Below are positions 12,502 through 61,596 of a stretch of DNA of 64,000 nucleotides, piece after piece. Origin of the DNA: Paratrimastix pyriformis. Lineage: Eukaryota; Preaxostyla; Paratrimastigidae. The stretch covers positions 352,501 through 416,500 of the forward strand of contig JAPMOS010000009.1 of the NCBI GenBank assembly GCA_027972325.1, in the 5' to 3' direction. Below the pieces are notes generated by a model. It was not told the DNA's origin. It saw only the letters and a program-made list of their open reading frames with translations, and did no database searches. The translations under genes and the position numbers were made by a program. The stretch's first letter is position 1. Every line of letters begins with the position of its first letter.

Positions 12502-14478
12502 ATGGGAAACAGTTTGGGAAGTGTGTCCGAGCGGACCAATCCAGGCCGCACTGATGACTTCCAGAGGGAAGCCAAAGGTCTCCATTTCTTTTGCTTCGAG
12601 TTGATCTCCCTCTAGAGATATTGACACCGGATCTGTTTGATGGTCTTCGGGTGGAGATTGGCCAATCTCTCTCGCAGAATCTGGGGCTCACTCACAGCTT
12701 TGTGATGGGGAGTAGCACAGTTCCATCTCATTATCAACTTGGCGCGAACTATCTTCGTGACAAGGTTTGATCGATCTCTCTTTCCCTCTCTTCTGATCGC
12801 CCCCAGATTTTTGTAACGGGGCGGTTCGATCATGCTGGCCGTCTCAGTGGCGCTGTGCGTGTTCAACCGCTCAAAGAACTCGCATCGAAATTCGAGTTTC
12901 TCGTCTGCATTCCTTGTTCGTCATGGCATCAATTCATTTCCTTTTTTGGCATCAATTCATTTCCTTTTTTTTAGTTGGGGCGAAGCAAGGCCGAGTGTGG
13001 ATGCCTTGCCGAAGTGGAACTGCGGGGGCGTGACTTTACCGGGGAGCTTCAGGCCAGCAGTGCCGGGGCTACAACCGCCCGGTGGCATCAGGCTGTCACG
13101 GACCGGGTCTCGGTGGTGGGCGAGGGCGTCTACCATCGGGCCAAGAAAGTCTCCCTGTTGCAAGGCGGTCTCCGCTTCGCCACCCCCGATTCCGTCACCA
13201 CCCTGAGGTCCGCACTTTGGGAACGACAGGCGGTGCTCCCAAACTCATGACACTTTCCGCCGCCACCCGCATCATCAGCATCAGCATCAGCATCAGTCTC
13301 ACCAACATCACCATCAGCATCATCGTCAGCATCAGCAATCGTCAGCATCAGCAATCGTCAGCATCAGCAATCGTCAGCATCAGCAATCGTCAGCATCAGC
13401 AATCGTCAGCATCAGCAATCGTCAGCATCAGCAATCGTCAGCATCAGCAATCGTCAGCATCAGCAATCGTCAGCATCAGCAATCGTCAGCATCAGCATCA
13501 TCGTCACGCACAAGTTCCTTCATGGGTCAGCTGATCACCTCGTACACTCCACACTCATAACCATAATCCACCACCCCGCACCACCATCACGTAGCGGCTC
13601 CTCCATGGGCCAGCTGATCACCTCTCCACGCTTTGTTTTCCATACTCATTCCACGATCCACCCCCCTCCTCCCACCCCGCACCACGTTAGCGGCTCCTCC
13701 ATGGGCCAGCTGATCACCTCGTACACGCACAGCCTGACGGACCGCCTGAGCCTGGCCACGGAGCTCTTTATGCAGCCCCGCACCCACGATGCTATCTTCT
13801 CGGTGGGCTACCAGGTCAAGCTGCGCAAGGCCATCGTCAGGGGGATGGTCTGCCTACCCCCGCCTACTCAACTCCCACCCCAGTCGCCCTCACCCGTCTT
13901 GTGGGATGCGTTCTCCACCCCTGTGTGACACCGCCACTGCCGCCGTCGCCATCCCCCCGCTCCTGCACCCATCTCCGTTCATCGCGTCATGCGCTTGGTT
14001 TCACTCACCATGTGTGTGATACTTCCCAGCTTTTGCCGGGTCCGTGCTCGGGCCGAAGCCCGCGGGTAACACCCTCACCATCCCGCCTCCATGGCTTGCA
14101 TCACCCCACGTGTGCCTCCATCACCCCCCATACTTGCAGGGTCTCCCTCACCCCCTCACCCATCTGTTTCCACGGTCTCCATCACCCCCTTACTTGCAGC
14201 GTTTCGATCACCATCCATCTGTTTCCACATGTGTCTCCATTACTTGCATGGTCTCCCTCACCCACACCCCATCCATCTTTGGGTCTCCCTCACCCCTCAT
14301 CCATCTTGTTTCGCATGTGCTCGCCGTGTCTCCTGACTGTCAGGTCGTCTCGAACGGGCGTGTGATGGCCTCGGTCAAGGACGAGATCGCCCCCAACACA
14401 GCCCTGCTGCTCTCGGGCGACCTCAACTACCTGGCCAACGAGTATAAATTCGGCCTGGGCCTCATCCTCGGCCAGTAG
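12502..14478 (+). CDS. TOM40: TOM40, mitochondrial outer-membrane import pore
   Basis: Six exons join in phase: 12502-12577, 12616-12764, 12807-12902, 12975-13207, 13691-13847 and 14344-14478, giving 846 nt (281 residues). The protein starts MGNSLGSVSERTNPG. It carries the porin_3-type strand pattern with LGLTHSFVMGSS, LGANYLRDK, FVTGRFDHAGRLSG, DRVSVVGEGVYH and FSVGYQVKLRKAIVRG. It ends ANEYKFGLGLILGQ, which fits the C-terminal beta-signal read by SAM50. TOM40 forms the channel through which preproteins enter mitochondria or mitochondrion-related organelles, so such an organelle is implied. Introns 1-3 are only 38, 42 and 72 bp; introns 4 and 5 are about 480-500 bp and repeat-filled. Intron 4 also holds two decayed copies of the exon 5 start. 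Confidence 0.9.
13265..13510. repeat. 16-bp minisatellite in TOM40 intron 4
   Basis: About 11 copies of CAGCATCAGCAATCGT, preceded by looser CATCAG repeats. A 16-residue period in translation (IVSISNRQHQQSSASA) reflects the 16-bp unit and is not coding. Confidence 0.92.
13515..13735 (+). repeat. Three serial copies of the TOM40 exon 5 start
   Basis: ATGGGYCAGCTGATCACCTC occurs at about 13522, 13604 and 13700. The latter two carry the full acceptor-plus-exon block AGCGGCTCCTCC in front of it. Only the last copy continues into the conserved TOM40 reading frame (SYTHSLTDRLSLATEL). The other two diverge after the shared block, so they are duplicated exon edges with candidate decoy 3' splice sites. 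Confidence 0.88.
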
Positions 14479-14812
14479 GGACAAGCGGGTCCACCCATCT
14501 TCCTTTGTTTGCATGTTGATTTGGTTGCCCCCACCCTGTCGGCAGATCTCATGTCGGCGACGCCAAACAAGGGGATGTTGTATGATATATTATGAGCACA
14601 ATTCCGAATCGCGCTTGCCAGACTCCGGCAAATCCCGGTGCGTTACTTCACCGACTGTTACCTTCGACTCACCGCAACAACTCGTTTGCGTCTCGGAACA
14701 TCCTGGATTAGGTTGCGAAGAGAAATTTCGAATTGACCGGAAACGGGGTTGTCCCCCAATTCGGGCCAATTCTTGAGCAGGAGCTCTGCTCGCCACCTTT
14801 TGTTTCAACATC
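14479..14812. other. TOM40-LRR1 intergenic region
   Basis: 334 bp between the TOM40 stop and the LRR1 start, both on the plus strand. A short open frame ends before 14776 but has no recognisable product. It contains the TOM40 3' end and the LRR1 promoter; no motif stands out. Confidence 0.5.
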
Positions 14813-59194: not shown

Positions 59195-61596
59195 CTACAA
59201 ATCGGTCATGAGCATGGCCCCGGGCCAGCGCCCCTTCAGCCGCTCGGCCCATGGGGAAGACACACCGCCCACCAGGCGCAAGTAGGGGGCCTCCCCGACC
59301 AGCTCGAACCGCTCCGCGTTTGTGTCTAGCAGAACGCGCTGCTCCTCCAGCAGCGGGCAGTCGAGCACCAGCGAGCGCGGGGTGGTGCCGTAGTCGTTGA
59401 AGATCCGCAGGGCTGGGCAGGTGAGGGTCAGATTCAGATCGGCCGGGTGGCCTGAAAGCTCGAGGCGAGTCAACCGGGGCAGCGCGCTCAGGGTAGCGGT
59501 CAGCTGGGACCAGGCCTCGCAACACGGCACGGGTGTGGACACAATGAACAGGTCGCTCAAGCGGTCCCCGTGTTGCCCCAGGCAGGCCATCAGAGGGGCA
59601 GCCTCCAGGGCATGACAGTCGTCAATGTAGAGGCTGCGAAGTCGCGACGACCCATCAGTCCCAGGGCCGACAGGGGCCGTGTCCAGGTTGAACGCGGTCA
59701 GGGTAGGCAGCGAGGACAACTGCAAGTCGACCAGGGCCGGGCAGCACAAATCAAGCGAGTTGACGCAAACGCAACCACTGCCGCAAAAACTGAAATCCCG
59801 CAGGCCGGAGGACCCAACGCTCATGTCAAAAGGCTCTTCTCCCACCGGTTTCTCGGCATCGGCATCGGCATCGGCATCGGCATCGACATCGGCATCGAAA
59901 TCGGCATCGACATCGACATCGGCACCGGCACCATCGACATCATTGGTCGTGGCCAGGGTCAGATCGAGGTGCTCGACGTGGGCGGGGAGGCGCAACTCCA
60001 CTCGGGTGAGCTGAGAGTCGTCGCCCGGGATGGCCAGACGGAATGGCGACAGGATGACCTGGAGGCTGGCCAGCGCCGGCATCATTTGGCAAAGCTCGAC
60101 AAGCTCCTGGGGGTCCGCGAGGTGTGCACCCGACACCCAGGATAAGCGGGGTGACAAGGCCCGCAGGGCGTCCAGGGAGGGACATTTGCGGCATTGCCAG
60201 TGGTAGCCCACTTGGTCCAAGAGGGGCATGGGCTGGCAATCCGTCAGCGACTGTTCGCCCAGGTTCAAGATCCGCTGAAGCCGGGGACAGTGCAGGAAAA
60301 GCGGATAATTGAGGATCGTCGCGCTGTCGATCGGGCTGGGCAGGGTGAGCATCTCCAGGGCGGGGCATGTCAGGACCACCGAGGTGCCGAGGCCTCGATA
60401 GATCATGTCCAGGTTCAACTTTTGCAAGCTGGCGCTGGCGATGTCGATCGGATTCAGGTACGCTTCCAGAGGGGTGGTGAGCACGCCCAGGCGAAGTGTT
60501 CGCAACTGGTTGAGAAGTGACGGGGGCAGGTCCGTCAGGTTGACCTCGCCCGGGGCGGAGGCCCGGATGACCAGGTCCAGGTCCGTCAGAACCGAGCACG
60601 TAGCCAGCACCTGGAACAGGGACCCGACTGGGCCGCTGGGTCGTACAGACAGCGAGCGGATTGTGGTCCGGTTGGCGGTCAGCAGGCGGGCCATGTCGGT
60701 GCAGGAGGCACCATCACACAGAGTGAGCGATTCGAGCCGGGTGAGTCCAAGGTCGAGCAGAGCTCTCCCGTCTTGGTAACCGCCGTTCAAGGTGAGGTGG
60801 GTCAGGTGGGGTGCGACAGGGGCCAGGGTGGGCGTGGTCCCAAGATGGAGCCGCTCCAGGTTGGTGAACGATTGCAGGAAGACGGCATCGTTCCGAAGGG
60901 CACCGGAGATGGTCAGTTGCTTGAGTCGGCCGCAAAAATGGGGAGATCGAGTCAACAGGGTCGGGTCAAACTCGCAGCTTTGGAACCCCCGCATCCGCAG
61001 ATTCAGGTGCAGGGCCTCGAGGCGGGGGCAGCATCCCACCAGGGCATCGAGGGGCGCCTCCAAGGGGGCATCATCGGAAAGTTCCAGCCGAAACTCTACC
61101 AGCCCCGAAAGGTGCCCCAGGATGCGTGGCAGGGCCGCCAGCACTGCATCGCCATAGGGGATGTGCAGCACGGCCAGCTGGGTGTGGCCGGCGAAGGCCT
61201 CGTCGACCCAGGGGCAATAGACGGCCTCGGTGCGCCCGCAGCCCCACATGGCCGGATCGCGAGTTGGCAGAGACAACTCGGCGAGGTCCTTGCAGGGGCC
61301 AACCAGGGCGGCCAATGCATCAGCCGTGGGTGTGGCCAGCACCACCTCGGTCTCGATACCATCGGCGGAATCCTCCGGATCGGTCTCAGCAAACGAAATT
61401 TGCCGCAGGGTGCCGCGAATGGCTTTCCGTGTAGCGTGCGAGAGCCCAATAAGAAGAATGTACAAACGGAGGGAGACCGGTGTGCCTTCAGGGCCCATCA
61501 GAACATGCAGCAGTTCGGGTGGCCATCGAGTTGGATCCTAAATGATGTGGTTTAGTCCACGGCATGGCAAAAACCACAAAATCCGAACAGACCATT
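59195..61596 (-). CDS. F-box-like/LRR protein 3, with intron right after ATG
   Basis: ATG at 61596-61594, then a 56-bp intron (GTCTGT...TTTAG, 61593-61538), then one exon 61537-59195; 781 residues in phase. The body begins DPTRWPPELLHVLMGPEGTP, shared with paralogue 2, then LIGLSHATRKAIRGTLRQIS and WVDEAFAGHTQLAVLHIP. About 20 leucine-rich repeats run to LKGRWPGAMLMTDL. A long Asp/Ala insert ([13 protein letters not shown], about 59855-59935) comes from GGCATC repeats inside the coding exon, showing that the microsatellite process also reaches coding sequence. The start lies 123 bp from the divergent LRR4 start. Confidence 0.87.

What the first reader, a model, noticed from the sequence alone, without database searches (positions are those of the whole stretch)
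12502..61596. 5' splice sites follow GTCYG instead of GTRAGT across all genes
I rebuilt 63 introns from protein homology and phase in TOM40, ATG7, RFC3, RPB5, the NUDT17-like gene, the phosphodiesterase, delta-COP, the Tctex light chain, the TRAF-type gene, the DsrE-like gene, three LRR genes and the helicase. By hand count 56 have C at +3, 55 have G at +5, and 45 match GTCYG exactly (GTCTGC, GTCTGT, GTCCGT, GTCCGC and so on). The kinesin and ABC genes follow the same rule but were not counted. In most eukaryotes +3 is a purine that pairs with pseudouridine or U in U1 snRNA. A near-uniform C at +3 suggests a changed U1 (or U6) recognition sequence in this lineage. I know of no described organism with this consensus, but I could not search.
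Basis: partly seen in the sequence, partly recalled or inferred. Interest (0 to 1): 0.9.

Follow-up and report, generated by a model that had tools for sequence, protein, structure and literature searches.

The report
Switched splice sites with matching U1
In the free-living anaerobic flagellate Paratrimastix pyriformis, introns typically begin GTCTG or GTCCG instead of the usual GTAAG-like signal, and the RNA that first recognises that signal (U1) has changed its own letters to match, which looks like a natural genome-wide co-switch of a splicing signal and its reader.

Summary
Confirmed and explained. The window belongs to Paratrimastix pyriformis (Metamonada, Preaxostyla): its published ATG7 maps onto it 727 of 727 residues. 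I re-derived 43 introns in five genes without using any donor signal beyond GT; 10 are backed by mRNA. C at +3 in 40 of 43, G at +5 in 40, GTCYG in 35, GTRAG in 0. An ab initio model over 264 kb finds the same motif, even started from a human-like donor matrix. The 8 U1 genes found all begin AUACAGACCUUG, not AUACUUACCUG: nt 6 G faces +3 C, nt 5 A faces +4 U. Predicted duplex energy averages -8.5 kcal/mol with the own U1, -4.2 with a canonical 5' end. U6 is unchanged, yet GUCUGU is the full complement of its ACAGA box, and U1 nt 1-7 (AUACAGA) equal U6 AUACAGA: both read the donor with the same letters. In yeast, +3 C overstabilises U6 pairing and impairs step two; here it is the norm. Untested, because the genome search stopped answering: METTL16, SNRNP27, U2, U5, U1 proteins; relatives' U1 was out of reach.

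The parts
18135..18189 (+). ATG7 intron, donor GTCTAG
   Evidence: profile of other species + published protein
19044..19267 (+). ATG7 intron, donor GTCCGT
   Evidence: profile + published protein
19448..20463 (+). ATG7 intron, donor GTCTGC
   Evidence: profile of other species; the published model splits this stretch into three introns
20561..20775 (+). ATG7 intron, donor GTGCGT (exception)
   Evidence: profile + published protein
20911..21062 (+). ATG7 intron, donor GTCCGG
   Evidence: profile + published protein
21262..22007 (+). ATG7 intron, donor GTCCGT
   Evidence: profile + published protein
22135..22341 (+). ATG7 intron, donor GTCCGT
   Evidence: profile + published protein
22418..22560 (+). 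ATG7 intron, donor GTCCGC
   Evidence: profile + published protein
22651..23017 (+). ATG7 intron, donor GTCCGT
   Evidence: profile + published protein
23148..23320 (+). ATG7 intron, donor GTCCGC
   Evidence: published protein only
26326..26376 (+). RFC3 intron, donor GTCCGC
   Evidence: human RFC3
26488..26533 (+). RFC3 intron, donor GTCGGT
   Evidence: human RFC3
26896..27000 (+). RFC3 intron, donor GTCTGG
   Evidence: human RFC3
27095..27224 (+). RFC3 intron, donor GTCGGT
   Evidence: human RFC3
27362..27476 (+). RFC3 intron, donor GTCCGT
   Evidence: human RFC3
27576..27650 (+). RFC3 intron, donor GTCTGT
   Evidence: human RFC3
27721..27778 (+). RFC3 intron, donor GTCTTC
   Evidence: human RFC3
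27854..27915 (+). RFC3 intron, donor GTCTGT
   Evidence: human RFC3
28290..28337 (+). RPB5 intron, donor GTCCGT; no AG at the acceptor in the best alignment, boundary uncertain
   Evidence: human RPB5
28452..28507 (+). RPB5 intron, donor GTCTGT
   Evidence: human RPB5
28590..28670 (+). RPB5 intron, donor GTTTGT (exception)
   Evidence: human RPB5
28749..28822 (+). RPB5 intron, donor GTCCGT
   Evidence: human RPB5
28884..28940 (+). RPB5 intron, donor GTCTGT
   Evidence: human RPB5
29020..29199 (+). RPB5 intron, donor GTTTGT (exception)
   Evidence: human RPB5
32383..32448 (+). delta-COP intron, donor GTCTGT
   Evidence: published protein P0243 only
32685..32771 (+). delta-COP intron, donor GTCTGT
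   Evidence: mRNA-derived protein P0241 (GAFH01001330)
33279..33395 (+). delta-COP intron, donor GTCTGC
   Evidence: mRNA-derived protein P0241
33508..33880 (+). delta-COP intron, donor GTCTGC
   Evidence: mRNA-derived protein P0241
33951..34298 (+). delta-COP intron, donor GTCTGG
   Evidence: mRNA-derived protein P0241
34401..34976 (+). delta-COP intron, donor GTCCGG
   Evidence: mRNA-derived protein P0241
35024..35177 (+). delta-COP intron, donor GTCTGC
   Evidence: mRNA-derived protein P0241
35267..35568 (+). delta-COP intron, donor GTCTGC
   Evidence: mRNA-derived protein P0241
35690..35986 (+). delta-COP intron, donor GTCCGC
   Evidence: mRNA-derived protein P0241
36128..36485 (+). delta-COP intron, donor GTCCGG
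   Evidence: mRNA-derived protein P0241
36555..36633 (+). delta-COP intron, donor GTCTGC
   Evidence: mRNA-derived protein P0241
55475..55737 (-). DDX47 intron, donor GTCTGT
   Evidence: profile of 71 homologues
55870..56319 (-). DDX47 intron, donor GTCTGG
   Evidence: profile
56435..56958 (-). DDX47 intron, donor GTCCGC
   Evidence: profile
57068..57337 (-). DDX47 intron, donor GTCACT
   Evidence: profile
57396..57761 (-). DDX47 intron, donor GTCTGC
   Evidence: profile
57941..58185 (-). DDX47 intron, donor GTCTGT
   Evidence: profile
58394..58451 (-). DDX47 intron, donor GTCTGT
   Evidence: profile
58585..58640 (-). DDX47 intron, donor GTCCGT
   Evidence: profile

Best explanation
These are major-class (GT-AG) spliceosomal introns of Paratrimastix pyriformis whose 5' splice site consensus has shifted from the usual GURAGU / GUAUGU to G|GUCYGY. 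The U1 snRNA changed with it: 5' end AUAC-AG-ACCUU instead of AUAC-UU-ACCUG, so nt 6 (G) can pair with +3 C and nt 5 (A) with +4 U. Shown: the donor consensus, the U1 gene sequence in the 8 copies found, the unchanged U6 in the 4 copies found, and the gain in calculated pairing. Inferred: that these RNAs are expressed and make these contacts in the cell, and the order of events. Proposed order: relatives already had +4 U (Streblomastix donors are +3 A, +4 U, +5 G); the donor then moved at +3 from A to C, completing its match to the U6 ACAGA box (UCUGU is its exact complement), and U1 followed at nt 5 and 6, becoming identical to U6 over AUACAGA. The donor is thus read twice with the same letters, first by U1 and then by U6.
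For: Donors: 43 window introns, C+3 40, G+5 40, GTCYG 35, GTRAG 0; 10 of 10 mRNA-backed delta-COP donors are GTCYG (GAFH01 is a poly(A) mRNA 454 assembly of Trimastix pyriformis, the former name of this species [synonymy recalled], PMC3596361, passages). Ab initio model with flat sites: 135 GTCYG of 405 against 5.8% of all GTs in that sample; started from a human-like donor matrix it still ends at 213 GTCYG and 4 GTRAG of 438; of 16 pseudo-donor dinucleotides GT gives the strongest flanking signal (0.63 bits, next AT 0.42). U1: 8 of 8 matches begin ATACAGACCTTG; 5 of them, folded together, give the U1 cloverleaf; all 8 have an upstream CCCATAATTTTTCC-like element that the 4 U6 genes also have. 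Pairing at -3..+6, G-U counted: own U1 better in 32, equal in 11, worse in 0 of 43; nt 5-6 AG ranks first of 16 dinucleotides. Duplex energy -8.5 against -4.24 kcal/mol, own stronger in 41, equal 1, weaker 1. U6: 4 of 4 copies ACAGAGA. Donor +2..+6 pairs to ACAGA: mean 3.93 of 5, against 2.49 to canonical ACUUA and 2.09 for all window GTs.
Against: +4 is C in 17 of 43 and +6 is C in 13 of 43; C cannot Watson-Crick pair with the A that both U1 and U6 present there. In the three ab initio sets U1 nt 5-6 GG would score better than the real AG, which ranks second. At -3 the U1 change G11 to U would favour A, but C is commonest (19 of 43; A 9, G 9). The U1 genes score below Rfam's gathering cut-off (50.8-60.2 against 69.5 bits), and only 41 of 992 first-look candidates were scored, so a canonical U1 copy is not strictly excluded. 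In the naked-RNA fold the U1 5' end pairs with the Sm-type site. No U1 RNA was seen here. The order of events rests on one relative read about in a paper.
Confidence: 0.9

Rival explanations
1. The donor change was driven by U6: selection for full pairing with the U6 ACAGA box (possibly after loss of U6 m6A methylation by METTL16) came first and U1 merely tracked it. This is a sub-hypothesis about the cause, not an alternative to the U1 match.
For: UCUGU is the exact complement of ACAGA; human GUAAGU pairs 3 of 5, GUAUGU 4 of 5, GUCUGU 5 of 5. METTL16 orthologues were not found in the Excavata sampled by Parker et al., and in yeasts its presence or absence is linked to +4 A or U (PMC10581693, passages).
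Against: METTL16 and SNRNP27 could not be searched in this genome (PF05971 did not complete in any of 19 attempts; SNRNP27 was never asked). In a yeast reporter +3 C inhibits the passage to step two (PMC11331412, passages), so tighter U6 pairing is not obviously better.
Confidence: 0.5
2. Mutational bias in a GC-rich genome turned A and T to C at donors, with no functional link to U1.
For: The window is 59.5% G+C and modelled intron interiors are 42% C; C at +4 and +6 is partly explained this way.
Against: C at +3 is 93% against 32% after all window GTs, +7 and +8 show no such bias, and the 8 U1 copies found carry the matching change.
Confidence: 0.02
3. The donors belong to the minor (U12-type) or to a nonconventional intron class.
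For: The consensus is not the textbook major one.
Against: No donor of 43 has A at +3, so none can be the U12-type GTATCC (motif recalled); 42 of 43 end in AG, and the matching snRNA is U1-like with a cloverleaf and Sm-type site.
Confidence: 0.02
4. The eight U1 genes are a divergent U1-like paralogue, and a canonical U1 missing from the assembly or from the scored candidates does the bulk of splicing.
For: Rfam scores lie below the gathering threshold and only 41 of 992 candidates were scored; a diplonemid has both a standard and an altered U1 (PMC12621601, passages).
Against: A canonical U1 5' end pairs less well with 41 of 43 donors; a canonical copy should score higher in the same search and none was returned.
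Confidence: 0.04

Closest known systems
Streblomastix strix (oxymonad, Preaxostyla) introns (PMC1501061, passages)
   Same: Related lineage, 20 of 21 introns GT-AG, +4 U and +5 G
   Different: +3 is A there, which the authors take to mean that interaction with U1 is conserved; here +3 is C and U1 is changed
Saccharomycotina donors and invariant U1 ACUUACC (PMC10581693, passages)
   Same: +4 U pairs with the central A of U6 ACAGA in S. cerevisiae; narrow donor consensus
   Different: ACUUACC was invariant in the U1 candidates found (227 of 230 Saccharomycotina, 9 of 10 outgroups); that paper proposed U1 nt 5 to A as a possible compensation and did not find it. Here nt 5 is A and nt 6 is G
Yeast 5'SS A3C reporter introns (PMC11331412, passages; its source Konarska 2006 not read)
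   Same: C at +3 pairs with the G of U6 ACAGA (yeast U6 G50)
   Different: An engineered reporter with a second-step defect in yeast; here it is the genome-wide norm
Giardia lamblia U1 and [G/A/C]UAUGUU donors (PMC3510501, passages)
   Same: Metamonad with divergent snRNAs and +4 U donors
   Different: Giardia U1 keeps the 5' ACUUAC
S. specki (a diplonemid), second U1 with a C stretch (PMC12621601, passages)
   Same: An altered U1 5' end in a natural genome
   Different: There a conserved U1 gene exists beside it and the donors are not a single new consensus
Compensatory U1 mutations made in the laboratory (mentioned in PMC11732430, passages)
   Same: A U1 change restores pairing to a changed donor
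   Different: Laboratory single-site repair, not a natural whole-genome co-switch

Membership tests
Major (U2-type) spliceosomal introns | GT-AG ends | tested here: met
   43 of 43 GT, 42 of 43 AG; the aligner penalises but does not forbid other ends, and two non-GT candidates were dropped
Major (U2-type) spliceosomal introns | 5' splice site complementary to the organism's own U1 | tested here: met
   mean 6.35 Watson-Crick pairs of 9 with own U1 against 5.14 with canonical; -8.5 against -4.24 kcal/mol
Major (U2-type) spliceosomal introns | GURAGU-type consensus at +3..+6 | tested here: not met
   GTRAG 0 of 43; R at +3 1 of 43
Major (U2-type) spliceosomal introns | U6 with ACAGAGA box in the genome | tested here: met
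   4 of 4 U6 matches
Major (U2-type) spliceosomal introns | Branch-point motif complementary to U2 | tested here: inconclusive
   weak enrichment only, CTCAC in 41 of 265 tails against 10 of 181 interiors; U2 search not answered
U12-type introns | donor RTATCCTT (recalled) | tested here: not met
   no A at +3 among 43 donors
U12-type introns | U11, U12, U4atac, U6atac genes | not tested
   not requested; the genome search gave no answer
U1 snRNA (Rfam RF00003) | full-length covariance match | tested here: met
   model 1-166 matched in 8 copies, E 3.7e-13 to 2.0e-10, but 50.8-60.2 bits, under the gathering score 69.5
U1 snRNA (Rfam RF00003) | cloverleaf, Sm-type site, stem-loop IV | tested here: met
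   consensus fold of 5 of the 8 copies; no compensatory pairs in it, so the fold rests on energy and on the Rfam model
U1 snRNA (Rfam RF00003) | canonical 5' end AUACUUACCUG | tested here: not met
   AUACAGACCUU in 8 of 8
METTL16-loss class of +4 U donors (yeast-like) | METTL16 absent, U6 not m6A-modified | not tested
   PF05971 requested 19 times, never answered

The most novel reading that the evidence does not exclude
U1 has become a copy of U6's reading sequence. The donor has settled on the exact complement of the U6 ACAGA box, the pairing that in yeast is so tight that it impairs the step from branching to exon joining, and U1 has followed until its first seven letters equal those of U6. 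Handover from U1 to U6 no longer tests the donor with two different sequences, so proofreading and the exit from step one should have been rewired, with changes expected in Prp16, Prp8, Cwc2/RBM22, Prp28, SNRNP27 or METTL16.
Probability: 0.5. Interest if true: 0.93.

Novelty: new variant of a known kind. Interest (0 to 1): 0.88.

Why it matters
The U1 5' end is among the most conserved RNA sequences of eukaryotes (general knowledge); Parker et al. 2023 found ACUUACC in every U1 candidate of their yeast survey and named the U1 nt 5 change as a possible but unobserved route to new donors. This genome appears to have taken that route and one more step. It is a natural double mutant that makes open questions testable: which of U1 and U6 dictates the donor, whether the two must differ for proofreading, what U1 pseudouridines 5 and 6 are for (both uridines are gone here), and how a spliceosome copes with +3 C nearly everywhere. 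Practically, gene finders and splice-scoring tools that assume GTRAGT should mis-annotate this species; the published delta-COP models already disagree with its mRNA.

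Tried and rejected
Mutational bias, U12-type introns and a hidden canonical U1 were considered and set aside (see rivals). Fonticula alba was my first guess for the organism; a paper search gave nothing useful and the ATG7 match replaced it. A branch-point motif search gave no clear motif. Rfam on the window and on 14 of the 20 fetched 10-kb regions found only tRNAs. 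The ab initio model recovers only 10 (flat) or 17 (trained) of the 43 homology-supported donors exactly; long simple-repeat introns probably confuse it, so I use it only as an unbiased check of the motif. The first spliced aligner mis-split delta-COP at two places where assembly and transcript differ in length by one base; a frameshift-tolerant version fixed this. The POLQ, RAD50 and XRN2 alignments outside the window are weaker: 6 of their 18 introns were dropped for poor flanks, two of those six being GTCYG. RPB5 on the minus strand, run to find the strand, scored 51 against 470 on the plus strand. Inosine at U1 nt 5 was considered for +4 C and left as speculation.

Full report
WHAT THE WINDOW IS. 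The window lies in a 56.06-Mb, 495-contig assembly. A draft ATG7 protein read from it hit one protein far above the others listed, ATG7 of Paratrimastix pyriformis, and that published protein aligns to window 18057-23418 with 727 of 727 residues identical. The published genome (PMC10703272; outline and term passages only) has 633 scaffolds, 56.6 Mb and 60.9% G+C, with gene models built from RNA-seq intron hints and PASA. NCBI places the species in Preaxostyla, Metamonada. A term search of that paper's main text gave 'intron' 2, 'splice' 1, 'spliceosom' 0 and 'snRNA' 0 occurrences, and none of the passages shown speaks of splice-site sequence.

CHECKING THE OBSERVATION BY HOMOLOGY. I wrote a spliced protein-to-DNA aligner that scores codons against a protein or profile and charges a flat fee for an intron; GT and AG are preferred (other ends cost a penalty), nothing else at the donor is scored. 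I keep 43 introns; four candidates were dropped and are named in the observation check. Result: +3 C 40, T 2, G 1; +4 T 23, C 17, G 2, A 1; +5 G 40; +6 T 23, C 13, G 7; GTCYG 35; GTRAG 0. The 10 mRNA-backed donors are all GTCYG.

CHECKING IT WITHOUT HOMOLOGY. A two-strand gene-finding HMM was trained on the window plus 20 regions of 10 kb from 9 other contigs (264 kb), with donors only required to be GT and acceptors AG. The regions were set by round coordinates on contigs that had come up in the U1 and U6 searches, so they are not a random draw. Without any splice-site learning the top donor pentamers are GTCCG (91) and GTCTG (44) of 405 introns, against 5.8% for the two together among all GTs of the sample. 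With learning, 211 of 439; starting from a human-like GTRAGT matrix, 213 of 438 with 4 GTRAG. Outside the window alone the flat version gives 109 GTCYG, 204 C+3 and 4 GTRAG of 326. As a control the same model was run with each of the 16 dinucleotides as pseudo-donor: GT gives the strongest flanking signal (0.63 bits; next AT 0.42), and the frame shifted by one base recovers the same motif (GGTCC). The model is noisy: it hits only 10 (flat) or 17 (trained) of the 43 homology-supported donors exactly. Three genes outside the window aligned to PDB relatives gave 18 introns, 12 with both flanks supported, 7 of them GTCYG.

U1. A genome-wide search with the Rfam U1 model returned 8 matches on 8 contigs. 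All 8 begin ATACAGACCTTG. The Rfam consensus is AUACUUACCUG. The changes are nt 5 U to A, nt 6 U to G and nt 11 G to U. The rest is ordinary: 5 of the copies, folded together, give the four-way cloverleaf with an Sm-type stretch AUAAUGUUUGG and stem-loop IV. All 8 genes have an upstream CCCATAATTTTTCC-like element that also stands upstream of the 4 U6 genes, so they look like true snRNA genes. Scores are 50.8-60.2 bits, under the 69.5 gathering score; 41 of 992 first-look candidates were scored. No canonical U1 was returned.

THE MATCH. U1 nt 6 G faces donor +3 and can pair with C; nt 5 A faces +4 and can pair with U. Over -3..+6, G-U pairs counted, the own U1 makes more pairs than a canonical one in 32 of 43 introns, equal in 11, fewer in none; among the 16 possible nt 5-6 dinucleotides the real AG ranks first. 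In the noisier ab initio sets GG ranks first and AG second. Predicted duplex energies average -8.5 kcal/mol (own) and -4.24 (canonical), own stronger in 41, equal in 1, weaker in 1; with +3 and +4 replaced by AA in the script the order reverses (-4.03 and -9.05); random GTs of the window give -4.05 and -3.37.

U6 AND THE DOUBLE READING. The four U6 genes found are standard, with GAUACAGAGAAG. Yet the donor stretch +2..+6, UCUGU, is the exact complement of ACAGA. Human GUAAGU makes 3 of the 5 pairs, GUAUGU 4, GUCUGU 5. And U1 nt 1-7, AUACAGA, are now the same as U6 AUACAGA. The observed donors average 3.93 of 5 pairs with this shared sequence (9 of 43 make all five), against 2.09 for all GTs of the window. 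In yeast an A-to-C change at +3 pairs with U6 G50, is called hyperstable, and inhibits the move to the second step (PMC11331412, passages). Here that change is the rule, so the machinery that releases the first-step arrangement is expected to have adapted; the U6 region just upstream of ACAGA, one place where yeast suppressors lie, matches the Rfam consensus, so the adaptation, if any, is elsewhere. That is inference.

WHERE IT CAME FROM. Streblomastix strix, an oxymonad of the same phylum, has donors with conserved A, U, G at +3 to +5 (21 introns; PMC1501061, passages), and Giardia U1 keeps ACUUAC with UAUGUU donors (PMC3510501, passages). So +4 U is probably old and the +3 C and U1 changes derived. 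A survey of yeasts named U1 nt 5 to A as a possible compensation for +4 U and found ACUUACC invariant in the U1 candidates it recovered, from 227 of 230 Saccharomycotina and 9 of 10 outgroups (PMC10581693, passages). The same paper links METTL16 to the +4 preference; I could not test METTL16 here.

WHAT DOES NOT FIT. C at +4 (17 of 43) and +6 (13 of 43) mismatches the A of both U1 and U6; composition explains part of it, since modelled intron interiors are 42% C, while in the trained ab initio set T is the base most enriched over that background at +4 and +6 and purines are depleted. The U1 nt 11 change predicts A at -3, which is not seen. Branch-point signals are weak.

NOVELTY. Ten searches of the held open library and the passages I opened showed no report of this consensus or of this U1 in any organism; I saw listings and passages only, and most subscription papers and all preprints are outside that library. 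I rate it a new variant of a known kind: U1-donor pairing is textbook, a natural whole-genome co-switch that makes U1 read like U6 is not something I found described.

Noticed in passing
window about 33421-33440 and 36000-36010: The assembly and the mRNA-derived delta-COP protein disagree in length by one base in short C-rich stretches, shifting the frame; probably assembly length errors.
   Followed up: partly
window 32383-36717: The published annotation has two proteins for delta-COP (P0243, P0242), each with stretches that differ from the mRNA-derived protein, P0242 reading intron sequence as coding; the mRNA shows one gene.
   Followed up: partly
window 20254-20463: Published ATG7 contains two extra small exons inside what the cross-species profile treats as one 1016-base intron; they may be a modelling error.
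   Followed up: partly
L001-L012: U1 and U6 genes share an upstream CCCATAATTTTTCC-like element roughly 60 (U1) to 67 (U6) bases before the transcript; U6 genes add a TATA-like stretch, which suggests a common snRNA promoter element.
   Followed up: partly
window 19450-19900, 20600-20760, 21240-21700 and elsewhere: Several introns are filled with long simple repeats (ATG/GTT triplets, CTGTG units, poly-G or poly-C).
   Followed up: no
window 5932-6003 (-) and 17124-17205 (+): Two tRNA genes (Rfam).
   Followed up: no
L027:1-8903 (-): The predicted protein seems to continue into a stretch that looks by eye like a reverse transcriptase, so a mobile element may lie beside or inside this helicase gene; no search was made.
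   Followed up: no
U1 nt 4-8 and 119-123 of the alignment (L001:1504-1508 and about 1618-1622): In the naked RNA fold the changed 5' end CAGAC can pair with GUUUG in the Sm-type site; prediction only.
   Followed up: no
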